A stretch of 26,779 nt of DNA. It comes from a virus. The position numbers and the translations under genes are program-made. Numbering within the stretch: position 1 is the stretch's first letter; the number at the start of each line of letters is the position of its first letter. The stretch lies in IMG/VR virus record IMGVR_UViG_3300020470_000176, positions 1 to 26,779 of that record, one strand, 5' to 3'. The notes beneath the pieces were generated by a model, which made no database searches, was not told the DNA's origin, and was given only the letters and a program-made list of their open reading frames with translations. Shown piece after piece: positions 82 to 21,370 of this stretch.

Positions 82-1127
82 TGGCATTAGATAAAGAACT
101 AAGAGTTAAAGAACTAAACACAAGTGGTTCATCCGCAGTGAAGTCTATCGACCCGTATGGTAGACACAACTTCTTTGCAGAGCAAATGAAAGAAGTAAAT
201 GGGTCTATGGATGGTGAGATGTTTAGTAAACTAAAGAAGCCAAAATATGATGAGAAACAACTCTTATTAGCAATTGATGCAGATGTTGATGAACTAATTC
301 CAAAAGCACCCAAAGATTTACCTGATGTAGTTTTAAGAAGTGAGTATGATGCTTTACAAGAAGAATTAAATAAAGCTAATGCTAAAATAGAAGAACTAAA
401 TGATATTATAGCAGAACTTCGTTCAAAGGTATCAGATTTAGAATCACAAATAGCTGGATTAAAATCAGAATTAGATGCAGCATTACTTAGAGTAGCAGTA
501 GCTGAAAACTCAGCTGAAGCATCTGCTGATAAGTTTGCACAAACGGCTGTAGATTTACAACAAGCTATTCAGAAATCGGTAGCAGAAGCAATCGAAAGAG
601 TTTCATTAGAAGCGCAAGTAGAAGGTTTAGTAGCACAGAAAGAAGCACTAATCGCTCAGATAGGTTCATTGGAAGAACAATTTAAAGGTAAGAGTGCAGA
701 ATTAGCTCAAGGTGCTGGAACATCAACAGGAGATAGTTCATCAGGTTCATTCACAGCAAGGATTGCAAATGCTTCGCCGGGCGAAAATGATATGATTGTA
801 AAAGGTGCAAATGAGAAAAGGGGAGGACCTGATATTAAATGGGATGTGGGGCCTGATATTGTTGTGTTAAATACAACCGCAGAACCTCTAAATGTTAAAC
901 TTTCATCAAGTGATTCATTATTTACCGCAAATGATTCAGCAACGATTCCATCGGGTGATAGCGCAACATTAACAGTAAAAGTTAACAAAGGTAGGATGAA
1001 ACAATTAAAACCAAAAAGAAGTATATCAGCTTCAAAAGATAAACATTATAGTGGTAAAATAACAGTAACTGGTAATGGTGAGACATTTGAATTTGGTGCT
1101 AAACTAATAAAGAGAAGAAAGAAATAA
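81..1127 (+). CDS. Coiled-coil virion-type protein with C-terminal beta-sandwich-like domain
   Basis: The product has 348 residues. Residues about 84-210 form a long alanine/glutamate/leucine-rich heptad pattern typical of a coiled coil. A Ser/Gly/Thr-rich linker follows (about 211-225). The last 90 residues (about 255-345) alternate hydrophobic and Ser/Thr/Asp residues, as expected for an immunoglobulin-like beta fold, and end in a basic IKRRKK tail. No enzyme motif is visible. The ATG overlaps the upstream stop (TAATG), and the next gene starts three bases after this stop. With its large structural-type neighbours, it is most likely a fibre, whisker or baseplate-associated virion protein. 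I do not recognise a named family. Confidence 0.7.
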   Translation: MALDKELRVKELNTSGSSAVKSIDPYGRHNFFAEQMKEVNGSMDGEMFSKLKKPKYDEKQLLLAIDADVDELIPKAPKDLPDVVLRSEYDALQEELNKANAKIEELNDIIAELRSKVSDLESQIAGLKSELDAALLRVAVAENSAEASADKFAQTAVDLQQAIQKSVAEAIERVSLEAQVEGLVAQKEALIAQIGSLEEQFKGKSAELAQGAGTSTGDSSSGSFTARIANASPGENDMIVKGANEKRGGPDIKWDVGPDIVVLNTTAEPLNVKLSSSDSLFTANDSATIPSGDSATLTVKVNKGRMKQLKPKRSISASKDKHYSGKITVTGNGETFEFGAKLIKRRKK

Positions 1128-1130: not shown

Positions 1131-3131
1131 ATGGCATTAAAGAATTATAAAGAAATATTACAAAAAGAAGCTCAAAGAGTAGATATCAAAGATAGAAAAA
1201 TCTTTGAAAGAGGTTCTTTGCCATCATTCTTTGGTAGAGGTGTAACTGATACTATTGAGTTTATTCTTTATGATAATGGTGATAATCAACTACCTCAAGG
1301 TGAAAGTGGTAAGTTAGTTAGATATGTAAATATTGCTGATGTAGAAAATATTAGAAAATATATCCTAATAGCAAGAGGTAAAACTTCTAATGCTACTACT
1401 GAATATTTTGTTGATATAGAAAGATTGATAAATGAAGCAGGATATAAAAACGGATTATTTAGAACTCAAATATCACTACTAAATAAAAGGGTTGGTAGTG
1501 AAGCAAATCAAAATAAGGTTTGGATACATGAAATATCACCATCAAGAACAGAAATAAGAGTTCTTCCAATCAAACCTGATACCCAAATAATGGAAGATGA
1601 TTTGAACGAAAGATATAATATATTTTTAAGAAACGGAGAATTTAGAGATGATGTTGTAAATCGGTTAGATGGATTTATAGATACTATAACTACAGAAAAG
1701 GTTTTAAAAAAACTAAACGCATTATTTGGAGCTGATTGGGTTAAAAATGTAAAAAGAGAATTTAAAATAGATGATTTTGAAAAATTTATAGACCAGTGTG
1801 TTGTAAAAGCAAAAGAAGCTATAGGGTATTATGTTAGTAATAGACAATATAAAATTGGTACTAAAGATTATGGAAAACCAATGATAGTAAATAAAAATCA
1901 AACAAGTTTTGATTTATCTACTTTAGTAAAAACATCTAATGAGATTATTTGTGATATAATCGCATTTTATTTACCAAAAAGAAATGTACAAGTTCAATCA
2001 GTACCATCTATAACTAAATTAGAATCAAGAGATAGAATAGATAGTATCCTACAATCATTTGGAACATCGAGAAAAATAGATACAAAAGTATCTGTTATGA
2101 AGAGGGTAGTAAAACCACTAAAGGTAACAAAAGCTAAAGTTGTTTCAGAAAAACCAGCTCCTTCAAAAGATGTAGTTATAAAAGGAGATACTAAAAGATA
2201 TTATTATTACCAAGTTACAAGTTTTCGAAAAAGAAGTCTTTTCAAAAGGAGAAAATCTTCTTTTGTAACAATTGAATATATCCAAATGGATGGTGATAAA
2301 GTTTCATTTACTTTACCAAATAAAAAATCTGTAAGAGTATGTGCTTTGGAGGGAAGTGTAAAAGCTATAAATGGTAGAGCTAGAATAATTAAAAAAGAAT
2401 TATGTGTAACAGATACACCTGTTCCAAAATTTATAACACCAAAAGTTCAAGATGATATTAAACCAAAAGATTTAACAAAAGACCAGCAAGATATTATTAA
2501 TAATTTACCTGATATAGATAAAATTAGAGAGAATATAAAGATTGAATTCCAACCACCTAAGTTTGATATGGAAAAAATGAGAAGAGAGATAAAGAAAAAA
2601 TTAACTTTACCTAAAATATCATTTCCAACATCTTTCTTAGTAGGAGCAGTTAATCCTGCTAATTTAGGTAAATTTACTGGATTTGTTCCAAAGGGGCCAG
2701 ATGCTAATATGTTTAACAGAACAGTCAATCAAAATTTAGCAGCTAGTTTTATGAGAAGTTTTAAACGAAAACCAAAACCAGTAATTAGAAGAAAACCTAT
2801 TCGTAAACCAACACCAATAGTACCAACAAGTCTTAGAACAATAAAACCTAATAATAATGTATTAAAAAATATAAGGAATAAATCATTGAACAATATATTT
2901 AGACCTAAAAGGAAAAGTGGTAGAGTTAGAACTGCTCCACCAAAAAGAAGATTCAATCAACCAATTCTTCCACAGCCAAGTAGAAAGGCAGGTAGAATTT
3001 CGTTTAGGAATATTAGAAAACCAAAATCTTCTTTAGGTAGTAGAACTACTAGAGCAGTTAGAAGTAGAGTAAGAAAAGGTACATTTCTTGGTAGAACAAG
3101 ATTAGCTAGGAGAAATAGAAATAGAGGATAA
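1131..3131 (+). CDS. Probable virion structural protein with a strongly basic disordered tail
   Basis: The product has 666 residues. The N-terminal 290 residues look globular and include the segment VWIHEISPSRTEIRVLP (about 130-146), which I recall from uncharacterised structural proteins of marine T4-like phages; that is memory, not a search result. The middle (about 350-430) looks beta-rich. From about residue 541 to the end the chain becomes Arg/Lys/Pro-rich with few acidic residues and is probably disordered. Its stop overlaps the start of the next gene (TAATG at 3129-3133), and that gene begins with an equally basic stretch. A baseplate or tail role is inferred from context. A nucleic-acid-binding or assembly role for the basic tail is possible but unproven. 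Confidence 0.7.
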   Translation: MALKNYKEILQKEAQRVDIKDRKIFERGSLPSFFGRGVTDTIEFILYDNGDNQLPQGESGKLVRYVNIADVENIRKYILIARGKTSNATTEYFVDIERLINEAGYKNGLFRTQISLLNKRVGSEANQNKVWIHEISPSRTEIRVLPIKPDTQIMEDDLNERYNIFLRNGEFRDDVVNRLDGFIDTITTEKVLKKLNALFGADWVKNVKREFKIDDFEKFIDQCVVKAKEAIGYYVSNRQYKIGTKDYGKPMIVNKNQTSFDLSTLVKTSNEIICDIIAFYLPKRNVQVQSVPSITKLESRDRIDSILQSFGTSRKIDTKVSVMKRVVKPLKVTKAKVVSEKPAPSKDVVIKGDTKRYYYYQVTSFRKRSLFKRRKSSFVTIEYIQMDGDKVSFTLPNKKSVRVCALEGSVKAINGRARIIKKELCVTDTPVPKFITPKVQDDIKPKDLTKDQQDIINNLPDIDKIRENIKIEFQPPKFDMEKMRREIKKKLTLPKISFPTSFLVGAVNPANLGKFTGFVPKGPDANMFNRTVNQNLAASFMRSFKRKPKPVIRRKPIRKPTPIVPTSLRTIKPNNNVLKNIRNKSLNNIFRPKRKSGRVRTAPPKRRFNQPILPQPSRKAGRISFRNIRKPKSSLGSRTTRAVRSRVRKGTFLGRTRLARRNRNRG

Positions 3132-6100
3132 TGAGATTTAGAAAGAGAAGAAATTTTAAAAAAGCACGACCATCTACTAGAAGAGGGCGTAATAGTGTAG
3201 GTAGAAAGAAACTGCCTAGTTCTTCACGAAATTTTTTATCTATAGTTAAGGCAAATGCTGGAGCACCAAGAATACCAGCTACAATACCTGTATCGGTTAA
3301 AAATACTATAGCATCTGCTATAGTAGCTGCAAGAGCACCAAAACCAATACCAACGCCAGCTCCACCTCGATTTACACCAAGACCAGCTCCTAAAAATCCT
3401 GTAGTAATAAGAAGGACTCCAGCGCCACCACCACGTAGAATCCCTCCAAGATTTACACCAAGACCAGCGCCAATCATTACTACACCGATTACAAGAAGTG
3501 CTTTACCATCTCCAGCTCCACCAAGAGCAGATAGAGGATTTCAAGATATAGCACCACCTATAATACAACCACCACCAAGAATTTCGGTTGGTGGTAGACC
3601 AAGAACTTTAGGTAATGCTCTTACTAATAACTTAGTTGTACCTGATAGAGTTCAACAAAGAATATTAGGTTCTCGTGGAGGAGGAGGACTAGATAGTGGT
3701 GGACTGAGTGGTCTTAGATTAAATAGAACTCAAGCTGGATTGCGTTTGCAAGGTGAAGGTTCAGGATTAAGAGGATTTTCAACTGATAGAGCTTTTGATG
3801 ATGCAATTAATGATGCTAATGTAAGAGCAAATCAAGTAATAAGAGAAAGTGGAGATAGAGATTTACTAAGAGGTGATGGAACTATGGCTCAATTACCAGC
3901 TAAACCTGCACCTTTTATCAAACCTAAACCACAAATAATAACACAACCAATAGTAGTATCACCGCCAGCTGGTAATGTTTCTGTTAATGTAACATCCAAC
4001 CCATCAGGCGCTGAGGTATTAGTTAATGGAACAAAGGTAAATTCACCAAACACACCATCACAATTATTTTTTACTCTTAAAGAATTACTTTCTAAAAAAG
4101 AAATTAGAGTTAGAAGAACTGGATATAAACCTAAACTTTATTATACTATTCAATCAAAAATTGAAGAAGAGGTTAAAATAAAACAAGTACCAACAGATGA
4201 TTTCGGTATTGGATTCGATACATCCTCTATAGATAGATTTAGATTAGGTGGTAGAGATAGATTTGGTGGAGGGCCATCTGTAATGGGTGGAGGGATAAGT
4301 GGATTCACAGGCCAACCAATACCTCTTGATAGAAATAACTTCAATAGAAGAATTTTCAGAAAGGTTGAAGAAAGAATACAAGTATTTAAAGTTGATGTTA
4401 AATACTATGAAAATGGAAAACAAAAAAACTTTGTTTCTGATTCTGTATCAAAAGTATTCCCATTACATTTTGATTTAGTTAAAAATAGTAAAGTAGACCC
4501 AGACCCAATAGATATTGATATTAAGGTACCTGATGATACACCACCACCACCAAAAGCAGTTCCTGAATTATTAGTTGTAGGAACAAGCGATAATGCAGTT
4601 GGTAAGTATGCGGCTACAATAACTTCTAAAACTGCTCCTGTTCAAAGAATTGGTTTAGATACTTTTAAATCCAAAGAATCTTTCGAAGTTACGATTAGAG
4701 CAAAACAACCTCAGGCGTATCAAATAAAAAAATTCTTTGTTTTAAAAAACAAAATAGAAGATGATGTAGATAGTAGATTCGAAGAAGTACCAGCGCAAGA
4801 AATTACATTAGAGGTAAACGGACCAATGAGTTGTGCTATAGAGTTTGTTAAAAATGTACCTATTTTAGTACCTTCTACAAGATTAAGTGGTACATCTTTT
4901 AAATACAACTTAGCATCACCGATACAAATACCTTTAGGATTTGATTCTACCAATTCAGATAAAACAACATTTAAATTAGATAGAACAACACTTACAGAAA
5001 CAGGTGATTCGGGTATATTCACAATAAGTAACAAAATGTTTAACAAAGGTGTTGGTCAATATACTGGATATGTTGTTCCAAGTAATAACGAATATGGAGA
5101 TGGAACACCAGTAAGATTTTCTATAAATGTTGTAAATGAAGTTAGAGTTTCAACTCCTGATATTATAAACATATCATATCCACAATTATTAAAAGGAGCT
5201 GACTTTGCAGGATATAATGTACCATTCTCTGTTCAGTATCAATCAGTAAACACAAACTTTGTAAACATTTATTTAGGTAATAAAAATATTCCATATGGTA
5301 AATTCTCACCAAATCAAAGTGTAGAATTTAATGTAGAGAGTATTATTAAAAAATTAGATGGTAAATATAAAGAAGATGGTGATAGTATCATATTTACAAT
5401 ATTATTACAACCACATAATACATCAACTAAAAAAGAAGTAATTGGTAAGTTAGAAGCTATTGATATAGAATTTGTAAAATCTGATTTAGAATTACCAAGA
5501 GATACTACTATAGAGCAATTATGTGATGGATTTGATTTCGATACAACTTTATTTGATGATGATACATCTAAATACTTAACACACTTAGCACATTTTGGAG
5601 CAGGTGATAATAAACTAATTACAACTTGGGATACTGATGACCAAACATTCGCAGAATATGATACGAATAACTTATTACAATTACCAGACCCAAATAATAA
5701 AACAGGTGGATTTGATGCATTAGTTCTAAAAATGTATGAACCTCTTCCAAAAGAAGTTCAGCCAAACCAAGAACTATGGATTTCTAAAATAGTAACTAGG
5801 CCTGTAATTGAAGAAGTTTCAATTATAGATGATTCAGAAGAATTTTGTGTAACAATTAAAGGACCTAACTTTATGGTTAATGATTGTGGTGCACCTGCTG
5901 ATACTGGATTTGAAATCATAGATGGATTGGTAGCTAGTGGTTCTGAATCATCAGCTAAACTTATTGATACATTCGTATCATCATCTGGTGTTGATACAAA
6001 AAAATTAAATATAGAATATGTTTCTTCATCTTATGATTTTATAGAAACAGAAAAAGGTTACTCTGTTGATGGAACTGTAAGTGAAGCATATAGATTCGAT

Positions 6101-8992
6101 AACTTTGTACACTTTGGTTCAGCAGAAGAAAGAGCAAGAAACTATTTTTACAAATTATCTCTTTTAGAAACTTACAAAAATGGTATAGCTACAATAGAAA
6201 GTGGTAGTGGTTCATCAACTGGTTCTTTATCTTTACTCAGAGAAAAAGAATCATTACAAAAGAAAATAAACGATGTAAAAGCTAACTTTGATGGATTTGA
6301 ACATTTCTTAACAGATTCGACATCATCATTAGCATTTCCAAAAGAATCAGATGGAGTATCCCTTCAATCAACTGGTAGTAGTGATTCAATAGCTTGGTAC
6401 AATACTCTCTTAGTATCTTCCTCAGCATATGATAAAGATAATGTAGATTATTTACCAAACAATATTCCTAATTACATTAAGAATGATGATGAACAAACTG
6501 ATTTTATAATGTTCTTAGATATGATTGGACATCATTTTGATATTCTTTGGACTTACATTACAGCGTTAAAGAAAAATATTAAGGTAGAAGAAAAACAAAG
6601 AGTTGGTATTAGTGATGATATGTTAAAACATATTCTTAAAAACTATAGTTGGATTCCACACTCTTCACAATCAACAAAAAGATTATGGGAATACGCTTTA
6701 GGATATAGAGATTCAAAACAAACATCAAAGTTAATTAAAAGTGGTAAAGAGTATGAAAATACAATTTGGAGAAGAATCTTAAATAACTTACCATATCTAC
6801 TAAAGAATAAAGGTACTCGTAGAGGATTAAGCGCAGTTCTTTCTACATATGGTATTCCATCATCACTCCTTACTATTATGGAGTTCGGTGGACCAAGACA
6901 ACAGGATTCACAAACAACTACATTTACATTTGATGATAGAACATCAGCAGTAGTATTACCAAATGCAACTGATGATGCATCTATATTAGTAGATTGGAAA
7001 TTAGAAAATGGTGTATCATCATCACACGCTATTGAAGCTAGATTTAAAACAAGTCAACAACATACACAATCACTTATTAGTAACGAACCATATTGGAATA
7101 TTACATTAGAACATCAGCATGGAGTTACTGGTAGATTAAACTTTTCATCATCATTTGGAGAGGTAATTACAGAATCAGGTTCATTATTTAACAATGAGTT
7201 TACACAACTTGTAGTAAATGTGAACCACCATTCGGCATCTGAAAATGGAACTTCTGAATCTATAGAATTAGTTGCTATGCAAGATTTCCAAAGTAGAATT
7301 AGAATGGGTATAAGTTCATCAACTGATTTTACTTCATCAATCAATACATTCTATAGTGGTTCTCAAATAGAATTTGGTACAGGATTTACTGGTTCTTTTG
7401 ATGAGATAAGAATATGGAGTTCATCACTTTCATCATCAGTAATTCAAGACCATACACTATTTCCTGAAAAGGTTAGTGGTAACCACATTTCATCTTCTAC
7501 TGAAGATTTAATGCTACGATTAGATTTTGAAAAACCTAAAAACTTAAATACAAATACTGTTATACCAAATGTTGCACCTGATACAGGTTCAAATGGAACT
7601 ATAAGATACGCTAGTTCTGCAACCGCTAGTAACTTTGATGATAACTCTACATATCCATATCACTACGAAGTGTATGATAGACAAGTAACAGCAAAAGTTC
7701 CTTCTATGGGATTCGGACCAGCTGATAAGTTTAGATTTGAATCAGCATCATTAGTACAAAATCTATCTTATAGACAAAGAGCTACAAAGAAAGCATTTGA
7801 TAGTGCACCATTAGATTCAAATCAATTAGGTATATTCTTATCACCAAACAAAGAATTAAATATGGATATTATAAAATCATTACCTGATTTTGTAATTGAT
7901 GATTATATTGGAGACCCATCACATCAATATTTAGATGATTATCCTGATTTAGAGGGATTAAGAGAATATGTGTTTGGTAGATATAACTTAAACATATACG
8001 AATATATTAATATTATAAAATATATTGATAAATCATTGTTTGAAACAATTAGACAAATGATACCTGCTAGGGTTAAAGTAATGGATGGATTACTGATTGA
8101 ACCTCACTTCTTAGAAAGAAATAAAGAAGAAAGAAAAAAACCACAAGCAGAGTTAATGGAATCTAAAGAGGGTGTACAAGATATTTCTAAAAACTCTATA
8201 GTTGATATTACATCATCTGTTGAAATGGAACAAGCAGATTTAGATTTAGAAAACTTAATTGAATTTGAACCATCTATACCACAACATGAAACTTTAATAA
8301 GTGAAAGTTCACAACCTAGTCTGTTGATTAACTATAATGATGTTAACGCAATAATAACAGATACAGAGGTAACAGAAGTATCAGCTAGTAGATTAGATTA
8401 CAATGTAATATTAGATGCTGAATCAAGTCAATCAAAACTATTAGAAGTTGATGTATTAAATAGTGAAATTATTGGATTAGACCCAGATGGATTAGCAAAA
8501 AATGGATTCGGATTAGGACCAGCAAAAAATGGTTTTATTCTTAGAACTACAAGAGATAAGTTTAATAATTACAAAAAAGAAAAACTTAGAGTTTGGGTTG
8601 TTAAAAAAGAAAAGAAATTTAAACAAAAAGTACAATTAAATCCGTTGGATAGTTCATTAGGTACAATTGTATCGGAATCAGCGGTAAGAACAAAAACAAT
8701 AATATCATTCACTTCACCATCTGGTTCATTAGCAAATTCAGTTGGTACTGTTGACCCAGACGGAACTATAGTACAAGTAACTGCATTAAATGGTTACTTA
8801 CCAACCCACCATAGAAATACATCCGATTTGACAACAGGAATGGAAAATTTATATTTTAAGGGTTGTAAACAAACACAAGCTACAACATTAGATGGAACTC
8901 CTCCAGTAGAGGTATTTACTACTAATCCTAACACTCTAAAAGTATCAGATAGTGGTAGAGGAAGTGGTGAACCGATATTAGAGATAGAATAA
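3131..8992 (+). CDS. Giant mosaic virion protein (PEGA-like, P2 gpI-like and LamG-like segments)
   Basis: The product has 1953 residues. The first 40 residues are very basic. Residues about 60-150 are Pro/Arg/Ala-rich with two copies of PPRFTPRPAP (78-87 and 105-114). Residues about 281-350 resemble a PEGA domain (VTSNPSGAEVLVNG). Beta-rich segments follow. Residues about 1120-1250 resemble P2 gpI-type tail proteins, including NNLPYLLKNKGTRRG at 1218-1232 and then a YGIP motif. Residues about 1260-1465 resemble a concanavalin/LamG-type lectin domain (SFDEIRIW). The segment MIPARVKVMDGLLIEPHFLER begins at about 1643. A baseplate or tail-tip protein that also binds glycans is the best reading. 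P2 gpI is normally only about 180 residues, so this would be a large elaboration. There is no frameshift across the 5.9 kb. Confidence 0.75.
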   Translation: MRFRKRRNFKKARPSTRRGRNSVGRKKLPSSSRNFLSIVKANAGAPRIPATIPVSVKNTIASAIVAARAPKPIPTPAPPRFTPRPAPKNPVVIRRTPAPPPRRIPPRFTPRPAPIITTPITRSALPSPAPPRADRGFQDIAPPIIQPPPRISVGGRPRTLGNALTNNLVVPDRVQQRILGSRGGGGLDSGGLSGLRLNRTQAGLRLQGEGSGLRGFSTDRAFDDAINDANVRANQVIRESGDRDLLRGDGTMAQLPAKPAPFIKPKPQIITQPIVVSPPAGNVSVNVTSNPSGAEVLVNGTKVNSPNTPSQLFFTLKELLSKKEIRVRRTGYKPKLYYTIQSKIEEEVKIKQVPTDDFGIGFDTSSIDRFRLGGRDRFGGGPSVMGGGISGFTGQPIPLDRNNFNRRIFRKVEERIQVFKVDVKYYENGKQKNFVSDSVSKVFPLHFDLVKNSKVDPDPIDIDIKVPDDTPPPPKAVPELLVVGTSDNAVGKYAATITSKTAPVQRIGLDTFKSKESFEVTIRAKQPQAYQIKKFFVLKNKIEDDVDSRFEEVPAQEITLEVNGPMSCAIEFVKNVPILVPSTRLSGTSFKYNLASPIQIPLGFDSTNSDKTTFKLDRTTLTETGDSGIFTISNKMFNKGVGQYTGYVVPSNNEYGDGTPVRFSINVVNEVRVSTPDIINISYPQLLKGADFAGYNVPFSVQYQSVNTNFVNIYLGNKNIPYGKFSPNQSVEFNVESIIKKLDGKYKEDGDSIIFTILLQPHNTSTKKEVIGKLEAIDIEFVKSDLELPRDTTIEQLCDGFDFDTTLFDDDTSKYLTHLAHFGAGDNKLITTWDTDDQTFAEYDTNNLLQLPDPNNKTGGFDALVLKMYEPLPKEVQPNQELWISKIVTRPVIEEVSIIDDSEEFCVTIKGPNFMVNDCGAPADTGFEIIDGLVASGSESSAKLIDTFVSSSGVDTKKLNIEYVSSSYDFIETEKGYSVDGTVSEAYRFDNFVHFGSAEERARNYFYKLSLLETYKNGIATIESGSGSSTGSLSLLREKESLQKKINDVKANFDGFEHFLTDSTSSLAFPKESDGVSLQSTGSSDSIAWYNTLLVSSSAYDKDNVDYLPNNIPNYIKNDDEQTDFIMFLDMIGHHFDILWTYITALKKNIKVEEKQRVGISDDMLKHILKNYSWIPHSSQSTKRLWEYALGYRDSKQTSKLIKSGKEYENTIWRRILNNLPYLLKNKGTRRGLSAVLSTYGIPSSLLTIMEFGGPRQQDSQTTTFTFDDRTSAVVLPNATDDASILVDWKLENGVSSSHAIEARFKTSQQHTQSLISNEPYWNITLEHQHGVTGRLNFSSSFGEVITESGSLFNNEFTQLVVNVNHHSASENGTSESIELVAMQDFQSRIRMGISSSTDFTSSINTFYSGSQIEFGTGFTGSFDEIRIWSSSLSSSVIQDHTLFPEKVSGNHISSSTEDLMLRLDFEKPKNLNTNTVIPNVAPDTGSNGTIRYASSATASNFDDNSTYPYHYEVYDRQVTAKVPSMGFGPADKFRFESASLVQNLSYRQRATKKAFDSAPLDSNQLGIFLSPNKELNMDIIKSLPDFVIDDYIGDPSHQYLDDYPDLEGLREYVFGRYNLNIYEYINIIKYIDKSLFETIRQMIPARVKVMDGLLIEPHFLERNKEERKKPQAELMESKEGVQDISKNSIVDITSSVEMEQADLDLENLIEFEPSIPQHETLISESSQPSLLINYNDVNAIITDTEVTEVSASRLDYNVILDAESSQSKLLEVDVLNSEIIGLDPDGLAKNGFGLGPAKNGFILRTTRDKFNNYKKEKLRVWVVKKEKKFKQKVQLNPLDSSLGTIVSESAVRTKTIISFTSPSGSLANSVGTVDPDGTIVQVTALNGYLPTHHRNTSDLTTGMENLYFKGCKQTQATTLDGTPPVEVFTTNPNTLKVSDSGRGSGEPILEIE
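3362..3472 (+). repeat. Two copies of a PPRFTPRPAP-coding repeat
   Basis: Bases 3362-3391 and 3443-3472 encode the same ten residues (PPRFTPRPAP) with different synonymous codons. They lie in the Pro/Arg-rich N-terminal region of the 1953-residue protein. The amino acids are kept while the codons differ, which points to selection on the peptide or an old duplication rather than a recent copying event. Confidence 0.85.
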
Positions 8993-12990: not shown

Positions 12991-13668
12991 ATGAATGATA
13001 TTTTTAAAGGACCTGTTTACGATTTTTTAGTAAATAAGAGCATTAATAATAAAGGTGATTGGGGTGGTAATGGTGGTACTTTAGATGCATCAACACCTCA
13101 AAATTTGGAAAACTCTAAAAAAGGTAATACTTTTATGAGAGAGTTCTTACAAAGTATATCACCAAAAAATATTATTGAAACTGGAACAAACTATGGTTCA
13201 TTCAGTTTTACTTGCTATGAAACACTTTCTGATTTTAATTTATACACTTGTGATAATTATGATTTAGATGGAAGTGGATGTCCATCAGAAGAGTGTATTG
13301 ATTTCATAAACAATCACTATAATGATAATAAAGTAAAATATTATAACAAAACATCTTGGGATTTTTTAGATGAAATAAAAAAACTTAATATAAAATTTGA
13401 TTTAGCATGGTTAGATAGTGACCATCAATACAGATTTTTAAAACAAGAATTAGATACTGTATCTACTATGGGTGTAGAATATATTATGGTTGATGATTTT
13501 TGGTATGAAAGAGATATACAAATGGCTGTATTTGATTTTCTAAAAGAAAATAAAGAATATAGATTTCATTCGTTTAGTAACATTAGAGAAGAAATTGGTT
13601 CAATAACGATATTACAAAAAACAGGAAAAAACCAAAGTTTACATTATGAGTCTGACTCAGAGAGATAA
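12991..13668 (+). CDS. Class I SAM-dependent methyltransferase
   Basis: The product has 225 residues. Residues 62-71 (IETGTNYGSF) form the glycine-rich SAM-binding motif I. An acidic TCDNYD at 86-91 ends the second strand. FDLAWLDSDH (136-145) and VDDFW (167-171) match the later strands of the methyltransferase fold, in the style of the family Pfam calls Methyltransf_24. DNA methyltransferase motifs such as DPPY are absent, so sugar, lipid or protein methylation is more likely. It is the first gene of a long cluster with sugar-nucleotide and glycosyltransferase-like genes, which favours a sugar substrate. Its 3' end overlaps the primase gene by 23 bases in a different frame. Confidence 0.78.
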   Translation: MNDIFKGPVYDFLVNKSINNKGDWGGNGGTLDASTPQNLENSKKGNTFMREFLQSISPKNIIETGTNYGSFSFTCYETLSDFNLYTCDNYDLDGSGCPSEECIDFINNHYNDNKVKYYNKTSWDFLDEIKKLNIKFDLAWLDSDHQYRFLKQELDTVSTMGVEYIMVDDFWYERDIQMAVFDFLKENKEYRFHSFSNIREEIGSITILQKTGKNQSLHYESDSER

Positions 13669-14587
13669 ATCAGTTGTAATAAATATTTTAGATGAGGTTT
13701 TAGGAGTGGGTACATCTTTAAAAGGAGATGAGCAAGCACATCATTGTCCATTCTGCCATCACCATAAGAAAAAGTTACAAATAAATTTAAATACACAAAA
13801 GTGGCATTGTTGGGTATGTGATGCAAAAGGTAAAAAGATTCAAACTCTTTTAAAACGGCTGCATGTTGATTCTAAACGAATCAAAAAAGTTTATGAAATA
13901 TATGGAGATGATTACATTGTTTCCAAAACTACCGATGAAGAAAAGGTAGAACTAAGGTTACCATCAGAATTTAAATCTTTGTTAACAAAACCAAAAGGTT
14001 TAAATCCATTGTATAAAAAGGTGGTACAATATGCAAAGGATAGGGGAATCACTAAAGAAGATATTATTAGATATAATATTGGTTATTGTGATAGTGGTAT
14101 TTATACCAATCGTATTATTATCCCTTCCTATGATGTGGATGGTAGACTCAATTACTTCATCGCACGCTCTGTATATGTTGAGGAAAAGTTTAAATATAAA
14201 AATCCGCCAGTTTCGAAAAATGTTACAATATTCGAAAACCAAATAAATTGGAAACAACCCATTACACTTTGTGAAGGAGTTTTTGATGCGATGAGTATCA
14301 AACGAAATGCTATTCCCCTTCTGGGTAAGTTTATTCCAAAAACACTAATGGATAATATCTATAAAAAAGGTGTAAAGGAAATCAAAATATTATTAGATAA
14401 AGATGCACAAGACCAAGCTCTTTACTATGTAAATTATTTTATGAATAACGGAATCACAGTTACAAATATTTTACCTACAGAAAAAGATGCTGGAGATATG
14501 GGATTTACGGAAGTAAACAAAATGTTAAAACAAACAAAGAAAAGTGGGTTTGAAGATATCGTAACTCAGAAATTGATGGGAATATAA
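13646..14587 (+). CDS. DNA primase (zinc finger plus TOPRIM)
   Basis: The product has 313 residues and should make RNA primers for lagging-strand synthesis. A zinc finger is visible: HHCPFC at 32-37 and CWVC at 55-58 give four Cys ligands. The TOPRIM catalytic core is present: CEGVFDA at 209-215 has the metal-binding Glu210, LLDKDA at 249-254 has the DxD pair (251 and 253), and KDAGD at 280-284 is the typical final element. The size is close to T4 gp61 (about 340 residues) and there is no helicase domain, so the phage needs a separate helicase outside this window. It overlaps the methyltransferase gene by 23 bases and the next gene starts three bases after it. Confidence 0.9.
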   Translation: MSLTQRDKSVVINILDEVLGVGTSLKGDEQAHHCPFCHHHKKKLQINLNTQKWHCWVCDAKGKKIQTLLKRLHVDSKRIKKVYEIYGDDYIVSKTTDEEKVELRLPSEFKSLLTKPKGLNPLYKKVVQYAKDRGITKEDIIRYNIGYCDSGIYTNRIIIPSYDVDGRLNYFIARSVYVEEKFKYKNPPVSKNVTIFENQINWKQPITLCEGVFDAMSIKRNAIPLLGKFIPKTLMDNIYKKGVKEIKILLDKDAQDQALYYVNYFMNNGITVTNILPTEKDAGDMGFTEVNKMLKQTKKSGFEDIVTQKLMGI

Positions 14588-14590: not shown

Positions 14591-15703
14591 ATGGAATCAG
14601 TAGACTATAATAATGTTAGAGAAAGTACAGTAGAAAGATTCTTTAATAAATACAAACTAATAGTATGTTTGCATGAAAGCGATTTAGATAAAGAATATCC
14701 TTTAGATATAGTTTTAAATGGTAATAAACATAGACCTATTGTTTTAGATTGCGTTACTTATGATTTACTAATAGATGATAAATTATATCAAACTGCATTA
14801 GATAACGGAGCAGATTTTATAGTAACATCAAACTTGTATCACGTAGGAAAACCAAACCATATATTATATGATAATAAACTTTATCAAAGTATATTTTATT
14901 TAGATAGAAAAGAATATTTTAAAGATTTAATAGAAAGAAGTTTTAAATTTTTAAGATTAAAAAAATTTACATTTTTGGCTAATCATATTAGATTTGAAAG
15001 ATTAGAAATATTTGATTGGTTATACAAAAAAGGTGTATTAAATGATGGTATTATAAATATGCCGAATCTAAATGGTGTATCTGAAGATGAAATCAATTAT
15101 TGTCTAACTGATGAACAAAAAGAAAAATACTTAGAATATAATTATGATTTTTTACCAATTAATGCAGATTTAGTTCCAAAGGAAACATTTACTGAAGATG
15201 CAAAACATCAAAAATGGTATGGTGGAGATAAAGGATGGGCAGATGTAGATGATTATGGGGAATCATATAATCCAATGTTGTACTTAAACTCTTACTTTGA
15301 AATACTATCAGAGACATACTACTATACACAAAATGTAAGATTGGATGAAGGTCAAAAAGTTAATCAAATTTCGGAAAAAACATTAAAACCAATAATGCAT
15401 TGTTTACCTCATTTTTGTTTAACACAAAAAGATTATTATAAAAAATTACAAGAATATGGACTTACATTTAAAAGTGAGATATTTAAATCAGTTTGGGAAT
15501 TTGATTCAATGGAAGCTGGATATGAAAAAACAAAAAAGTTTTTAGAAGCAAATGAGTGGTTATTTAATTTAACAAGAAAAGAACTACATACATTATATGT
15601 TAGTGCTTACTCAGAATTACATCACAATAAAAGGACACTACTTAAAAATTTCTCAATTAATGGTAAGATTGCATATACCACACCAAATTTAAATACTGAA
15701 TGA
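14591..15703 (+). CDS. Glycosyltransferase-like protein (copy 1)
   Basis: The product has 370 residues. The C-terminal half carries a pattern I associate with uncharacterised GT-B-type glycosyltransferases related to the fucosyltransferase GT10 group: NSYFEILSETYYY (233-245), then ISEKTLKPIMHCLPHF (260-275), then LQEYGLTF (286-293). Upstream, FTFLANHIRFERLEIFDWLYKKGVL (127-150) matches the usual NxxxxxHR-type block of the same group, although the usual His-Arg pair reads Glu-Arg here. Sampled DNA is very AT-rich (15 percent GC in 14881-14940). The gene ends in an ATGA overlap with the next SGNH gene. The donor sugar is unknown. It is clearly related to the gene at 16461, which supports one family with two members. 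Confidence 0.6.
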   Translation: MESVDYNNVRESTVERFFNKYKLIVCLHESDLDKEYPLDIVLNGNKHRPIVLDCVTYDLLIDDKLYQTALDNGADFIVTSNLYHVGKPNHILYDNKLYQSIFYLDRKEYFKDLIERSFKFLRLKKFTFLANHIRFERLEIFDWLYKKGVLNDGIINMPNLNGVSEDEINYCLTDEQKEKYLEYNYDFLPINADLVPKETFTEDAKHQKWYGGDKGWADVDDYGESYNPMLYLNSYFEILSETYYYTQNVRLDEGQKVNQISEKTLKPIMHCLPHFCLTQKDYYKKLQEYGLTFKSEIFKSVWEFDSMEAGYEKTKKFLEANEWLFNLTRKELHTLYVSAYSELHHNKRTLLKNFSINGKIAYTTPNLNTE

Positions 15704-16464
15704 AAAATATATTATCATTAGGTTGTAGTTGGATGCGAGGATTTCCTGAAGATAGAAGGGAAGAAAGAGCATTAGGATACTATTTGGGTAAAGAATTAAA
15801 TTTAATTCATTTAAATGGTGCTATATCATCGGGTGGTAATGATTTGATATTTGATAACTTTTTAAATATTCAAAACAATACACTTAATTTAGCATTATAC
15901 GATTCAAAAGGAGAATCGGTTTCACCTAATAACACATTTGTTGTTATTGGATTAACTGAACCAGCTAGAAGAAGTGTTTGGTGGGAAGGTAAATGGGGGC
16001 CAACATTTAGACCTTATTCTGATGATTATTGTGATTTTAAATTACCAACAGAAGTAAACTATTATTTTTCGCAAGAAGAAATAATTTACTATAATAATAT
16101 AAAAAATATAATTACACTTTACAATTATTTAAAAGCTAATAATTATAAGTTTGTAATTTTACAAGGATTAAAAAACTACTTTCACACTATGAATAAGTTT
16201 GTTAATGTAAAAGAACCAACATTTTTCAATACCTTAAAAGATGAGTTTTTAAAAATTAAAAATTCAAAAGAATGGATAAAGGAATGTTATAGGGATTGGA
16301 TAGTAAGTAATTCTAAAAATATAGTTTGGGCTGATAATGAAAAAAAAGTAATAGATTATTCAGAATTGCTGAGACTTGATAAACATCCAACTGAGCTGGG
16401 AGCTGAATCCTTTGCTAAGTATTTAATAGAAACATATAGTGAAAAGTTTGGAATTAAAATATGA
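15700..16464 (+). CDS. SGNH-type hydrolase/esterase-like protein (copy 1)
   Basis: The product has 254 residues. Block I is LGCSW with Ser10 as candidate nucleophile. SGGND at 44-48 fits the Gly and Asn oxyanion blocks. LDKHPTELGAESFAKYL at 226-242 carries the Asp227-x-His229 pair of block V. SGNH hydrolases remove or transfer acyl groups, often acetyl on polysaccharides, so a sugar deacetylase or acyltransferase is a reasonable inference. No signal peptide is visible, so it should act in the cytoplasm or reach the virion another way. Its start and end both overlap neighbours by ATGA, placing it between two glycosyltransferase-like genes. Sampled DNA at 16081-16140 is only 10 percent GC. Confidence 0.68.
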   Translation: MKNILSLGCSWMRGFPEDRREERALGYYLGKELNLIHLNGAISSGGNDLIFDNFLNIQNNTLNLALYDSKGESVSPNNTFVVIGLTEPARRSVWWEGKWGPTFRPYSDDYCDFKLPTEVNYYFSQEEIIYYNNIKNIITLYNYLKANNYKFVILQGLKNYFHTMNKFVNVKEPTFFNTLKDEFLKIKNSKEWIKECYRDWIVSNSKNIVWADNEKKVIDYSELLRLDKHPTELGAESFAKYLIETYSEKFGIKI

Positions 16465-17564
16465 TTTACACTTTAGAAGTAAATTTTGGTGATGGGATTT
16501 ATGTTCAATTAAATGAAATTTTACATAAAGCTGGTATTAAGTTTGAAACCTTAGTATATGATGTAGGAAATGAATTACATTCGGTTTCAATAGATAATAA
16601 TATTTTCGATTTTGTACAATCAAAAGTAACAAAAGATGATACTTTGATTATTGAATCATCTTACTTTTTTAGCTCTACTAAAGAAGATTTTGATTTTAGT
16701 AAATTAGATTCTTTACCATGCAGAACTTTTGTTTTACATTCAGAGAGTCGTTTTATAGATAAATCAAATGTTTTTAATCCACATTATGATTTAGATAATG
16801 TAGTTATAAACTCACCAAACTTTTACCTACTTAATTTTGGATTATCAAAATACAGATGGTTAATCCATACATTATTTGAAAGATATAGAAATATGTACAG
16901 AGATAAAATTTTCTATTGTACAAATGGTGTTTTTAAAGGACATAGAACATTACTTTATAGTTTACTAAAAGAAAACAATATTTTAGGTAGTACTTACTAT
17001 TCATATCAAGGTTATAGTAATTTGGATGAGGATTATGAAACACATTTTAAAAATATAGATGTAAGAAATCCAATAACGGAAAAATATTTTGAATCATTAA
17101 AAAAAGAATTACCGATTGTATTAGATTATGATTGGCATGGAAAGGTAGACCAAGCATCAGTAACATTACCATACACAACAAATTCATACATCTCATTAGT
17201 TTGTTGTACAAACTATCAACAAACAAAAGAAATCTATACATCTGAAAAAATATTTAAACCATTCTTTTCATTTCATATACCAATATTTTTTGGAGAAAGA
17301 GGATTATATAGTGTTCTAAAAAAACTTGGATTTTATTTATTTGATGATTTGATAGATTTATCATTTGATAACATTCAAGATAATGGAGAACGATTTTATA
17401 TGGCGTTTGACCAAGTTTATCATATAAACGGAATGGGTAAAAAAGAATTACATAACTACTATAGTAAAAAACACAATGAACTATTACATAACTTTAATTT
17501 ATTAAAAAAGTTAAGTGATGCTCAATTGGAAAATTTAAATAAATTAATTTATGATAATAAATAA
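16461..17564 (+). CDS. Glycosyltransferase-like protein (copy 2)
   Basis: The product has 367 residues and shares the layout of the gene at 14591: FYCTNGVFKGHRTLLYSLL (151-169) is the Asn...His-Arg block, NSYISLVCCTNYQ (241-253) precedes TSEKIFKPFFSFHIPIFFG (260-278), and LKKLGFYLFDD follows. This order matches the C-terminal nucleotide-sugar-binding region of GT10-like transferases. The two proteins are otherwise divergent, so they likely use different donors or acceptors. It starts at an ATGA overlap with the SGNH gene and its end overlaps the Mre11-Rad50 fusion gene by 14 bases. The sugar and the acceptor cannot be read from the sequence. Confidence 0.62.
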   Translation: MIYTLEVNFGDGIYVQLNEILHKAGIKFETLVYDVGNELHSVSIDNNIFDFVQSKVTKDDTLIIESSYFFSSTKEDFDFSKLDSLPCRTFVLHSESRFIDKSNVFNPHYDLDNVVINSPNFYLLNFGLSKYRWLIHTLFERYRNMYRDKIFYCTNGVFKGHRTLLYSLLKENNILGSTYYSYQGYSNLDEDYETHFKNIDVRNPITEKYFESLKKELPIVLDYDWHGKVDQASVTLPYTTNSYISLVCCTNYQQTKEIYTSEKIFKPFFSFHIPIFFGERGLYSVLKKLGFYLFDDLIDLSFDNIQDNGERFYMAFDQVYHINGMGKKELHNYYSKKHNELLHNFNLLKKLSDAQLENLNKLIYDNK

Positions 17565-20500
17565 AATTTATCACTTAGCAGATTTACACATTAGAAATCT
17601 GAAGAGACACAAAGAATACAGAGAAGTATTCAATAAATTTTTAAAACAAGTAAAAGAAGATAACATAGAAGATTCTATGATTTATCTTGCTGGTGATATT
17701 GCTCATGCTAAAACTGAGATGTCACCCGAACTCGTTCAAGAAATCAGTTGGTTTCTGACCGAGTGCTCTAAGCTTAGAGAAACTGTGTTAATCACTGGAA
17801 ATCATGACTGTAACTTAAATAATAACTATAGATTAGATGTACTCACACCTATTATCGAAAACCTTGGAAATCCTCGGATTCATTATCTTCGTGATACTGG
17901 CGTTTACAATATCCATAATCTCACTTTTGTTGTGTATTCTATACTTGATAGGAAGGAAAATTGGCCTAAAGGAGATACCATTGATGGAGAACATAAAATA
18001 TGTCTTTTTCACGGACCGGTAAACGATTCTAAAACTGATGTTGGATATATTGTATCATCCAACTCATTCACCGAAGAAATGTTCGATGGATTTGATATGG
18101 CTCTATTAGGAGATATTCACAAAAGACAAACTATTGGAGGAAACCATATCGCATATGCTGGTTCTATGATTCAACAAAATCATGGTGAATCGTTAGAAAA
18201 GCACGGATACTTACTATGGGATGTACCAACTCGTACATTCGAAGAATTTAACATTCCTAATGATTACGGATTCTACACTTTAGATGTAGACAATGGAGTG
18301 GTGCCTGATGTGGATGATATGCCTAAGAAACCTCGATTAAGAGTTAGGATATCAAATACTGACCCATCACAAATCAAAAGGGCTATAACTCAAATAAAGA
18401 AAAAGTATAAAGTTCAAGAGTTCACTGTAACTCGGATGGATACTTTAACCAAACAAAAAGTTGGTGAGTTTGATTCCAACTTAACAATTGGTAATGTTAG
18501 GGATGTTGAATTACAAAACGAACTCATCAAAGGGTACTTAGAAAGGCAGTACTTAGCAGATGATGATACGATAGATAAGATTCAGCAAATCAACAGAGAT
18601 ATCAATACCAAACTTACAGATGATGATGTAACTCCTAATATACAATGGATACCACAATCATTTGAGTTTACTAATATGTTCTCATATGGTGAGGATAACA
18701 AAGTTGATTTTACTAAAACAAAAGGTATCGTTGGTATATTCGCTCCCAATGCTAGTGGTAAATCAGCTCTCTTTGATGCATTATCCTTTTGTGTATATGA
18801 TAAGACAAGTAGAACTTATATTGCTAAGAACATACTTAATAATCGTAAAACACACTTTAGATGTAAACTACACTTCCAAATAGATGAGATAGATTACTAC
18901 ATAGAAAGAAGAGCAAAGTTAATCAACCACGGAAGAAATCTAAAAGTAGATGTAGATTTTTGGAGTGATGAGAATGGACACATAACTTCACTTAATGGTG
19001 AACAACGAAAAGATACAAACAAAATCATCATACAATACTTAGGTAAGTATGAGGATTTCGTACTTACTACTTTATCACTACAAGGTGATAATGCACTATT
19101 CATTGATAAATCACAATCCGAAAGAAAGGAGATATTAGCTCAATTTATGGGAGTAGATATCTTTGATAAACTATATGGATTGGCAAGTGATGAGAACAGA
19201 GATAACGCTTCACTTATCAGAAAATTCAAGAGTGATGATTTTACGACCCGACTCGCCGACATCGAAAACAATCTTAAATCTTCTATTGAGGAGTATGGGG
19301 AAATGGAAAAGGAACAAGATACTGCTAAGAGTAAAGAAGAAGATTTACAAAACCAAATTGTAAGATTAAATGAAAAGATTGTAAAGTTAAATGCTGATAG
19401 TGGTGTATCGATTGAAGATTTAGAAAAAAGATTAAAAATTCTACAAAAGAAAAAAGATAAGATACACACCGATAAAGATTCGATACAAAATAGAATAACC
19501 CAAAGAGAAGAACTACAAATAACGCTAGAAGAGATTTTAGATAAGTTTGATGAGGAAGTATTAGAAGAGGGAATGGGTTCTTTAAATGAAGCAAAATTAG
19601 AATCAGGTAAGGTTAAATCTGATTTAGATAAAATAGAAATAAAATTAGATTCTCTATATGAAAGAAAACAACATTTGGATTCACACAAATATAATGAACA
19701 ATGTGATATCTGTATGGAAAATTCACAAACTATTTTAGAGCAAAAAGAAAAAGTAGATAAAGAATTAGATGAAAAGGAATCAGAAAACAAACAATTAAAA
19801 TCTAAACTATCTGAAATAGAAATTAAAATAGATTCTTTAAAAACTTTAGAAGAAGAGTGGAAGAATTTCAATGAAGCTAAAGAAAAGGAAGATAAGATTG
19901 ATAGAGAGATATCTCAACTTATTAACAAGTTATCAACAATTGAAACTGAAGAATTTAAGAATTCTACCCAACTCGCTCAACAAGAACAACTTATTGAGGA
20001 ATATTATAAGAATGAAAAACAGATTAAGAAAAATAAAGAAGTAAGAGATGAGATTGTGGATGTTCGTTCTGATTTAACAAATATCAAACAAATAATCAGA
20101 AATAACAATACGGATATTTTAAGGATGAATGGTACAATATCTGCTCTTCAAAATCAAAAAGAAACAATTGAAGATAGAATTAAAGAGGTAAAGGATTTAG
20201 AAGAAACACATAACCTATTTGAATATTATCTTAATTCTTTGGGTAGAGATGGTGTATCATATGAGTTGATACAAAAAGCACTACCAATGATTGAAGGTGA
20301 AGTAAATAATATCTTAGGACAGATTGTTGACTTTGGAATGCAGTTAGAGATGGATGGTAAGAATGTTAACGCATTTATCGTTTACGATGACCAGAAGTGG
20401 GGATTAGAGATGTGTAGTGGTATGGAAAGGTTCATATCAGGTTTAGCGATTAGAATCGCTCTAATCAATGTTTGTAACCTTCCAAGACCTAACTTCTTAG

Positions 20501-20685
20501 TAATTGATGAAGGGTTTGGTACATTAGATAATGAAAATTTAACATCTCTTTATATGTTATTCGCATATTTAAAGACACAATTTGATTTTGTTATGATTAT
20601 TTCACATATCGATTCTATGAGGGATGTTGTTGATAGTTTAGTGGAGATTAAAAAAGTCAATGGATTTAGTAATGTAAAGTATTAA
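17551..20685 (+). CDS. Single-chain Mre11-Rad50 (T4 gp47-gp46, SbcD-SbcC) recombination nuclease
   Basis: The product has 1044 residues. Residues 1-230 are a metallophosphatase nuclease with all the usual ligands: DLH (Asp11, His13), GD at 48-49, GNHD at 83-86, His154 in FHG, and GDIH at 187-190. An ABC-type ATPase begins at about 370, with Walker A APNASGKS at 398-405. A long acidic coiled coil spans about 560-920, with a CDIC zinc hook at 718-721. SGMERFISG starts at 956 and is the signature motif, and FLVIDE at 982-987 is Walker B, followed by GFGTLD. In T4 and most hosts the two subunits are separate genes; here one uninterrupted frame joins them. The complex processes DNA ends for recombination-dependent replication. 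All catalytic residues are present. Confidence 0.93.
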   Translation: MIINKIYHLADLHIRNLKRHKEYREVFNKFLKQVKEDNIEDSMIYLAGDIAHAKTEMSPELVQEISWFLTECSKLRETVLITGNHDCNLNNNYRLDVLTPIIENLGNPRIHYLRDTGVYNIHNLTFVVYSILDRKENWPKGDTIDGEHKICLFHGPVNDSKTDVGYIVSSNSFTEEMFDGFDMALLGDIHKRQTIGGNHIAYAGSMIQQNHGESLEKHGYLLWDVPTRTFEEFNIPNDYGFYTLDVDNGVVPDVDDMPKKPRLRVRISNTDPSQIKRAITQIKKKYKVQEFTVTRMDTLTKQKVGEFDSNLTIGNVRDVELQNELIKGYLERQYLADDDTIDKIQQINRDINTKLTDDDVTPNIQWIPQSFEFTNMFSYGEDNKVDFTKTKGIVGIFAPNASGKSALFDALSFCVYDKTSRTYIAKNILNNRKTHFRCKLHFQIDEIDYYIERRAKLINHGRNLKVDVDFWSDENGHITSLNGEQRKDTNKIIIQYLGKYEDFVLTTLSLQGDNALFIDKSQSERKEILAQFMGVDIFDKLYGLASDENRDNASLIRKFKSDDFTTRLADIENNLKSSIEEYGEMEKEQDTAKSKEEDLQNQIVRLNEKIVKLNADSGVSIEDLEKRLKILQKKKDKIHTDKDSIQNRITQREELQITLEEILDKFDEEVLEEGMGSLNEAKLESGKVKSDLDKIEIKLDSLYERKQHLDSHKYNEQCDICMENSQTILEQKEKVDKELDEKESENKQLKSKLSEIEIKIDSLKTLEEEWKNFNEAKEKEDKIDREISQLINKLSTIETEEFKNSTQLAQQEQLIEEYYKNEKQIKKNKEVRDEIVDVRSDLTNIKQIIRNNNTDILRMNGTISALQNQKETIEDRIKEVKDLEETHNLFEYYLNSLGRDGVSYELIQKALPMIEGEVNNILGQIVDFGMQLEMDGKNVNAFIVYDDQKWGLEMCSGMERFISGLAIRIALINVCNLPRPNFLVIDEGFGTLDNENLTSLYMLFAYLKTQFDFVMIISHIDSMRDVVDSLVEIKKVNGFSNVKY

Positions 20686-20686: not shown

Positions 20687-21370
20687 ATGAGTAGATTATT
20701 TACATATGGTTGTTCATTTACGCAAGGTATGTGGGAATTTGATGAATCATCAAGTGGTCCTGATGAATATAAAGGAGTGGGCACATCACATGAATTTGAA
20801 TACAATACTAAAAAAAATTGGGTAAGATTACTTGGAGAAAGTTTAGATTTGCATGTTGAAAACAAAGGATTTGAAGGAAGTGGTGTTTTATATGCTATTC
20901 ATTGTATTCATAGAGATATGTTTATGTATAACGAAAATGATGTAGTAATTATACAACTAAGTTATGGGGAAAGAAAATTTTCTCATTTACATAGATTTTT
21001 ACCACCACATTCTCACCAAAAACAAAAAGAGTGGTTAGAAAAAACACCCGAATGGATTGGTGCGGATGATACATTTCGTTTGGAGTCTTGGTATTTACGA
21101 AGTATTTTTGAAACACTACAGAAATTAAAAGTAAAAGTTTTCTTTTGGACTACACAAGAATTACCATCTGAATATGATTTAAATCAATATGAACATCTAA
21201 GATTAACATTTGATGAAACTCCACATTATTTAAATTGGATAGAACCCAAAAAAGAAATGTATTACGATTATGAATGGAAAGGAGATGGGGCAGTAGATTT
21301 TCACCAAAATGAAGTATCACATCAAGCTCAAAGTTTAATTTTTAAAAGACAAATAAAACAATGCGAATAG
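20687..21370 (+). CDS. SGNH-type hydrolase/esterase-like protein (copy 2)
   Basis: The product has 227 residues. Block I is TYGCSFTQG with Ser10 in the same position as in the SGNH protein at 15700. NKGFEGSGV (59-67) fits the block around the oxyanion glycine, and VDFHQNEVSH (203-212) gives the Asp204-x-His206 pair. The canonical block III GxND is not obvious, so catalysis is not certain. It starts one base after the Mre11-Rad50 stop and overlaps the dehydratase gene by ten bases. The two SGNH proteins share the N-terminal block but little else. A role in trimming or acylating a sugar is inferred from the neighbours. Confidence 0.65.
   Translation: MSRLFTYGCSFTQGMWEFDESSSGPDEYKGVGTSHEFEYNTKKNWVRLLGESLDLHVENKGFEGSGVLYAIHCIHRDMFMYNENDVVIIQLSYGERKFSHLHRFLPPHSHQKQKEWLEKTPEWIGADDTFRLESWYLRSIFETLQKLKVKVFFWTTQELPSEYDLNQYEHLRLTFDETPHYLNWIEPKKEMYYDYEWKGDGAVDFHQNEVSHQAQSLIFKRQIKQCE

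What the first reader, a model, noticed from the sequence alone, without database searches (positions are those of the whole stretch)
17551..20685. Mre11 and Rad50 homologues fused into one polypeptide in a phage
One uninterrupted 1044-codon frame carries a complete metallophosphatase nuclease (Asp11/His13, GD48-49, GNHD 83-86, His154, GDIH 187-190) followed by a complete Rad50-type ATPase (Walker A 398-405, CDIC zinc hook 718-721, signature from 956, Walker B 982-987). In T4 (gp47, gp46), E. coli (SbcD, SbcC) and eukaryotes these are separate proteins that assemble as a 2:2 complex. A fusion fixes the 1:1 ratio and tethers the nuclease to the ATPase base, which constrains how the complex opens. 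The nuclease comes first, followed by a linker at about residues 230-370.
Basis: partly seen in the sequence, partly recalled or inferred. Interest (0 to 1): 0.78.

Follow-up and report, generated by a model that had tools for sequence, protein, structure and literature searches.

The report
Phage Mre11–Rad50 fusion, a known kind
One viral gene really does encode a DNA-break-processing nuclease and its ATP-driven partner as a single protein, but this fusion was described in 2011 and hundreds of related virus contigs carry it; the more unusual point is that in some relatives the nuclease half has since been cut in two by an inserted gene.

Summary
It is not a sequencing error: the junction is intact in 59 non-redundant full-length homologues, and residues 340–380 show no amino-acid change against four close relatives despite many silent changes. 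Residues 230–370 are not a plain linker: they hold the Mre11 capping domain, the helix-loop-helix Rad50-binding domain and only about 13 linker residues. The protein belongs to T4-related large phages as their only detected gp46/SbcC-like ATPase. It most likely does the job of T4 gp47+gp46: break resection, recombination-dependent replication, host-DNA degradation. N-Mre11/C-Rad50 fusions with the same GDxH substitution were reported for Mimivirus R555, a Bacillus phage and marine metagenomes (PMC3175470). So: a new member of a known kind. New here: in at least 25 related contigs the nuclease domain is split again by a glycosyltransferase-like gene, in a huge phage by a TnsA-like endonuclease gene at the same site, and in a third lineage with no inserted gene.

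The parts
17551..20685 (+). Mre11-Rad50 (SbcD-SbcC, gp47-gp46-like) fusion gene, 1044 codons plus stop
   Evidence: intact in 59 non-redundant full-length homologues
17551..18255 (+). Mre11-like metallophosphatase nuclease core, residues 1-235
   Evidence: phrog_100 E 8e-30; VIA-align Z 24.7 to SbcD 7dog_B over 4-296
17581..17589 (+). nuclease motif I, D11-L12-H13
   Evidence: D11 and H13 invariant in A4
17692..17706 (+). nuclease motif II, GDIAH 48-52
   Evidence: invariant G48, D49, H52
17797..17808 (+). nuclease motif III, GNHD 83-86
18007..18018 (+). nuclease motif IV, FHGP 153-156 (H154)
18109..18120 (+). nuclease motif V, GDIH 187-190; Asp188 in place of the first His of GHxH, as in R555; the insertion site of the split relatives follows at about residue 195
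   Evidence: PMC3175470
18265..18435 (+). Mre11 capping domain (strands 239-247 and 260-268, helix 272-286, strand 291-295)
   Evidence: model m11c3a3529835; structural alignment to Mre11/SbcD reaches 295-306
18442..18486 (+). flexible stretch, residues 298-312 (pLDDT < 50)
18505..18606 (+). Mre11 helix-loop-helix Rad50-binding domain (helices 319-333 and 338-352)
   Evidence: [quoted passage not shown]
18607..18645 (+). true inter-subunit linker, residues 353-365
   Evidence: between end of HLH (352) and start of the Rad50 alignment (366); no nonsynonymous change in 340-380 against four close relatives
18646..19230 (+). Rad50-like ATPase lobe I (366-560)
   Evidence: VIA-align Z 30.7 to E. 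coli SbcC head 7yzo_D, model 366..1044; Pfam AAA_23 E 5e-12
18742..18765 (+). Walker A APNASGKS 398-405
19240..19680 (+). ascending coiled coil, residues 564-710 with short breaks
19702..19713 (+). zinc hook CDIC 718-721
   Evidence: C718 and C721 invariant in 60 aligned sequences
19714..20241 (+). descending coiled coil, to residue 897
20335..20682 (+). Rad50-like ATPase lobe II (929-1044)
20416..20427 (+). ABC signature SGME 956-959
20494..20511 (+). Walker B FLVIDE 982-987
20518..20529 (+). D-loop GTLD 990-993
20605..20607 (+). H-loop His1019
13646..14587 (+). context: DNA primase upstream (also upstream of the fusion in Microcystis phage Mel-JY01)
   Evidence: phrog_47 E 1.4e-50

Best explanation
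The gene encodes an R555-type Mre11-Rad50 fusion of a T4-related large phage and serves as that phage's gp47/gp46 recombination nuclease. Inferred working: two copies pair through their nuclease domains and their ATPase heads, giving the usual two-nuclease, two-ATPase complex from one gene product. Each HLH (319-352) docks onto the coiled-coil root of its own or its partner's Rad50 part, and the ~13-residue linker spans the short remaining gap to the ATPase. ATP holds the heads together on DNA ends; hydrolysis lets the nuclease reach and cut the DNA. The ends that result feed UvsX-type recombination and recombination-dependent replication, and host DNA is degraded. The fusion most likely arose by joining adjacent 47-46 genes of a T4-like operon. 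Shown: frame, motifs, domain order, folds, purifying selection, T4-like capsid gene in relatives, no other AAA_23 protein in the long relatives. Inferred: stoichiometry, conformational cycle, biological role.
For: Continuous frame and motifs. Nuclease, capping and HLH align to full-length Mre11/SbcD (3tho_B Z 24.2 over 4-355; 6s6v_A Z 23.7 over 4-356), and 366-1044 to SbcC/Rad50 (Z up to 30.7). dN/dS 0.03-0.09 over 236-356. All eight long records searched carry a T4 gp23 major capsid protein (E <= 1e-76) and exactly one AAA_23 protein, the fusion or its split form. In T4-like Aeh1 gene 47 is immediately upstream of 46, sharing one base; in S-SSM7 the order is 47, one small ORF, 46. Closest viral structures are giant-virus MR fusions, with Tenacibaculum phage proteins of similar length below them. 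R555 has the same GDxxH and GDxH motifs.
Against: No activity has been measured. Asp188 replaces a metal-ligand His of canonical Mre11, so nuclease activity or metal preference could differ. Inter-domain placement in the model is uncertain (pTM 0.43). The long relatives are probably incomplete records, so 'only one' is not proof. The window is itself a 26.8-kb fragment without a capsid gene.
Confidence: 0.87

Rival explanations
1. The fusion is an assembly or sequencing artefact that hides a stop and a start between residues 230 and 370.
For: Only the general possibility with metagenome assemblies of AT-rich DNA.
Against: The same junction is intact in 59 non-redundant full-length homologues from independent contigs, in Microcystis phage Mel-JY01, and the junction codons are under purifying selection.
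Confidence: 0.01
2. The nuclease half is degenerate: the protein is mainly a DNA-tethering SMC-like ATPase with little or no nuclease activity (Asp188 for His; Gln for His13 in one clade).
For: GDxH instead of GHxH throughout the family; 16 loci have DxQ in motif I.
Against: All other ligands are invariant over 60 sequences, nuclease dN/dS is 0.05-0.10, Asp can bind Mn/Mg, and R555-type proteins share the change.
Confidence: 0.08
3. The protein acts in phage-host conflict, for example as a counter-defence or anti-competitor nuclease, rather than in replication.
For: Weak resemblance of a relative's nuclease half to the DS-8 anti-phage family model.
Against: The score is far below that family's cut-off (33 vs 790 bits), and DS-8 is a metallophosphatase-NACHT protein, not an MR fusion. 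The gene lies near a primase and is the only gp46-like gene of T4-like phages.
Confidence: 0.04

Closest known systems
Mimivirus R555-type Mre11/Rad50 fusion (Yoshida et al. 2011, PMC3175470; structural relatives in Tupanvirus, Catovirus, Klosneuvirus, Harvfovirus)
   Same: N-Mre11/C-Rad50 order, capping and HLH retained, short linker, GDxxH and GDxH motifs, abundant in aquatic viral metagenomes with phage-like neighbours such as primase
   Different: 1044 aa against 1351 for R555, so a shorter coiled coil; here in T4-related phages
Microcystis phage Mel-JY01 AAA-domain protein WWT39521.1
   Same: one frame, full-length alignment at 38% identity, primase shortly upstream
   Different: annotated only as 'AAA domain containing protein'
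T4 gp47 + gp46 (and Aeh1, S-SSM7 homologues)
   Same: same two enzymes, same gene order, T4-like capsid gene in the phages concerned
   Different: separate proteins; the S-SSM7 gp47 has GHxH where the fusion family has GDxH
E. coli SbcD + SbcC / T. maritima Mre11-Rad50
   Same: folds of nuclease, capping, HLH and ATPase head
   Different: separate proteins, 16-22% identity in the structural alignments; scores far below NCBIfam cut-offs
Aeromonas phage Aeh1 split NrdA (mobE insertion; 'genes-in-pieces')
   Same: precedent for the split relatives: a phage gene cut inside a functional region by an inserted gene, halves kept (PMC2988022)
   Different: different host gene; in the main split clade the inserted gene is glycosyltransferase-like; tail resemblance to Aeh1 is not significant

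Membership tests
R555-type Mre11/Rad50 fusion | single polypeptide, Mre11 part N-terminal to Rad50 part | tested here: met
R555-type Mre11/Rad50 fusion | GDxxH in motif II and Asp in place of the first His of GHxH | tested here: met
   GDIAH 48-52 and GDIH 187-190; R555 description
R555-type Mre11/Rad50 fusion | capping and HLH domains kept, followed by a linker of about 9-12 residues | tested here: met
   linker ~13 residues; expectation in PMC3175470
R555-type Mre11/Rad50 fusion | groups with R555 in a tree | tested here: inconclusive
   R555 itself was not in the tree; nearest viral models are fusions of its giant-virus relatives, Tupanvirus E 5e-70, 26% identity
T4 gp46/gp47 | two separate proteins | tested here: not met
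T4 gp46/gp47 | carried by phages with T4-type major capsid gp23 | tested here: met
   8 of 8 long records of relatives; not testable in the window fragment itself
T4 gp46/gp47 | needed for recombination-dependent replication and host-DNA degradation | not testable with these tools
   needs genetics
canonical SbcC / SbcD (TIGR00618, TIGR00619) | score over the curated cut-off | tested here: not met
   93 vs 478.5 and 34.9 vs 77.65 bits
Mre11-Rad50 fold superfamily | Mre11 nuclease + capping + HLH, and Rad50 ABC head with zinc-hook coiled coil | tested here: met
DS-8 anti-phage protein (NF053861) | metallophosphatase plus NACHT, score over cut-off | tested here: not met

The most novel reading that the evidence does not exclude
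Fusion followed by fission. In a sister lineage with at least 25 contigs, the already fused Mre11-Rad50 gene has been cut inside the nuclease domain, just after the GDIH metal motif, by a glycosyltransferase-like gene joined through overlapping stop/start codons. A 484-kb phage has a TnsA-like endonuclease gene at the same site, and a third lineage has the split without an inserted gene. All halves stay open, keep their catalytic residues and carry matching end extensions. The reading is that a homing-endonuclease-type element opened this site, the two halves reassemble through these extensions, and in one lineage a metabolic gene now occupies the slot.
Probability: 0.6. Interest if true: 0.55.

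Novelty: new member of a known kind. Interest (0 to 1): 0.3.

Why it matters
The fusion extends a 2011 observation to a large, common clade of T4-related phages and shows it is their only detected gp46-like protein. A compact 1044-residue single-chain MR enzyme would be a convenient structural and biochemical model of the complex. The split relatives matter more: they are a natural test of whether the Mre11 nuclease core must be covalently continuous, and a case of a catalytic domain divided at one site in three ways.

Tried and rejected
Intron in the interrupted relatives: no Rfam match in L023, L025, L041 or the window, and the insert is an ORF joined by overlapping stop/start codons. Split intein: no conserved Cys/Ser at the start of the insert and no conserved HN+Cys/Ser/Thr before the C half; extensions of ~28 and ~18 residues are short (sequence inspection). 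Homology of the split extensions to the Aeh1 NrdA tails: resemblance (V-D-x-[FY]-K-L) gives shuffle fractions 0.007-0.29 for the tail and 0.30-0.99 for the head, so not claimed. Tail search in phages: no match. Single origin of all splits: held together they are rejected (AU p 4e-83), but L047 is a long branch and one gain with re-fusion is not excluded. DS-8 defence link: rejected. The first structure model (16 sequences, pLDDT 71.8) was replaced by one with 60 sequences (pLDDT 80.4). Homologues in the genome collection were four contigs only: three metagenome-assembled bins with fusions (L133-L135), possibly phage contigs binned with hosts, and one weak partial match (L136); no cellular spread is claimed.
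Full report
WHAT IS THERE. The frame 17551-20685 on the + strand is open for 1044 codons. The N-terminal part matches the PHROG family of SbcD-like subunits (E 8e-30, residues 5-347), the rest the SbcC-like family (E 1e-50, residues 279-1044).

NOT AN ARTEFACT. After removal of near-copies, 59 full-length single-frame homologues (979-1064 aa) remained, at 38-95% identity to the window protein. Between the window and four relatives (L002, L004, L017, L038) residues 340-380 have no nonsynonymous change while 13-34% of synonymous sites differ; dN/dS over 236-356 is 0.03-0.09. The junction is a real, selected part of the protein.

ANATOMY. An AlphaFold2 model from 60 sequences (mean pLDDT 80, pTM 0.43) shows the nuclease core (1-235), a capping domain (239-295), a flexible stretch (298-312), two helices 319-333 and 338-352, and then the Rad50 start at 366. 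In a first model, residues 4-355 align with Mre11 including its C-terminal HLH domain (3tho_B Z 24.2, rmsd 6.6, 316 residues; 6s6v_A Z 23.7, rmsd 5.4, 327 residues). In the second, residues 366-1044 align with the SbcC head (7yzo_D Z 30.7, rmsd 3.2, 347 residues). So the 'linker at 230-370' consists of two known Mre11 domains and about 13 linker residues. Yoshida et al. estimated that 9-12 residues would bridge the two proteins in the T. maritima complex (PMC3175470). The coiled-coil arms are about 150-180 residues each, with an invariant CxxC hook.

CONTEXT. The window is a 26.8-kb virus record. Upstream lie a primase, a methyltransferase and a segE-like GIY-YIG gene; downstream are nucleotide-sugar epimerase and UDP-glucose dehydrogenase genes. 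Eight long records that carry the fusion or its split form (152-484 kb) all encode a T4-type gp23 capsid protein and only one AAA_23 protein each. Hence these are T4-related phages in which this protein stands in for gp46 and gp47. In T4-like Aeh1, gene 47 directly precedes 46 and shares one base with it, the arrangement from which a fusion is easiest. Mel-JY01, a Microcystis phage, has the same architecture with a primase upstream.

MECHANISM. Shown: both enzymes, all ATPase motifs, all nuclease ligand positions (Asp188 in place of a His). Inferred from the Mre11-Rad50 literature: dimerisation, HLH docking on the coiled-coil root, ATP-gated access of the nuclease to DNA ends, and a role in end resection for recombination-dependent replication and host-DNA breakdown. 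The claim that the fusion constrains opening is weak, since the HLH already attaches Mre11 to Rad50 in unfused complexes.

KNOWN OR NEW. Yoshida, Claverie and Ogata (2011, PMC3175470) described this fusion in Mimivirus R555 and twelve further proteins, including one from Bacillus phage 0305phi8-36, in the same order. They noted R555-like sequences as abundant in marine viral metagenomes and next to phage primase genes, and suggested operon-to-fusion evolution from T4-like genes. R555 shares two active-site features with the window protein: GDxxH, and Asp for the first His of GHxH. The closest viral structure models are giant-virus fusions (Tupanvirus E 5e-70). The finding is therefore a new member of a known kind.

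AN UNEXPECTED SIDE FINDING. In a sister clade (~40% identity) the gene is interrupted just after the GDIH metal motif. The first piece is 234 aa, ends in an extra ~28-residue tail, and its stop overlaps the start of an ORF of 294-315 aa. That ORF has weak similarity to heptosyltransferases and GT9 enzymes (NCBIfam E 0.0015-0.007; PDB 3tov E 0.65) and is followed by the 866-aa remainder, which begins with a ~18-residue head. It occurs in at least 25 distinct contigs. All catalytic residues are kept and both halves are under purifying selection (dN/dS 0.04 and 0.07; tail 0.08, head 0.19). In the 484-kb phage LR756508 the same site holds a different ORF with a TnsA-like endonuclease domain (Pfam PF08722 E 6e-6, just over its cut-off), partly similar to an 'endonuclease' of Bacillus phage Moonbeam. 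L219 is split there with only a short spacer. The tails of the three types resemble each other strongly (none of 2000 shuffles as good; the compared stretches include a few shared core residues), although a single clade of split genes is rejected. Fused relatives L184 and L221, sister to L219, lack the tail. A homing-endonuclease insertion that split an essential phage gene and left it functional is known for Aeh1 nrdA (PMC2988022). No description of a split Mre11 turned up in the literature searches made here, which cover open-access papers only.

LIMITS. No biochemistry; the window and most relatives are fragments; contig counts are lower bounds; R555 itself was compared only through the paper and through structure models of its relatives.

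Noticed in passing
L023-L030, L032, L033, L039-L043, L045, L155, L156, L233, L234, L236, L239, L240, L243, L245: Mre11 nuclease domain of the fusion split by a glycosyltransferase-like gene after GDIHKxQ, with overlapping stop/start codons and conserved end extensions; at least 25 contigs.
   Followed up: yes
L047:5962-10172 (LR756508.1): Same split site occupied by an ORF with a zinc-binding-looking N-terminus and a TnsA-like endonuclease domain in a 484-kb phage.
   Followed up: partly
L219:6500-6900: Same split site with only a short non-coding spacer; the two halves carry matching tail and head.
   Followed up: partly
L110-L116, L118, L119, L123, L125, L126, L128, L134, L135, L159: Clade of fusions in which the motif I metal-ligand His is Gln (SDIQIRN), with the other nuclease motifs kept; 16 loci.
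   Followed up: partly
L048:3001-6609: Distant 1202-aa fusion in a 735-kb uncultured phage.
   Followed up: no
window 14591-15703 and 16461-17564: Two ORFs that by eye resemble phage glycosyltransferases (a fucosyltransferase-like motif ...SEKIFKPFFSFHIPIFFG... in the second); no Pfam or PHROG match. The second overlaps the start of the fusion gene by 14 bases.
   Followed up: no
window 15700-16464 and 20687-21370: Two ORFs that begin with an SGNH-hydrolase-like motif (GCSWMRG, GCSFTQG); no family match.
   Followed up: no
window 3131-8992: 1953-aa ORF with weak laminin-G/PEGA-like matches, perhaps a structural or adhesion protein.
   Followed up: no
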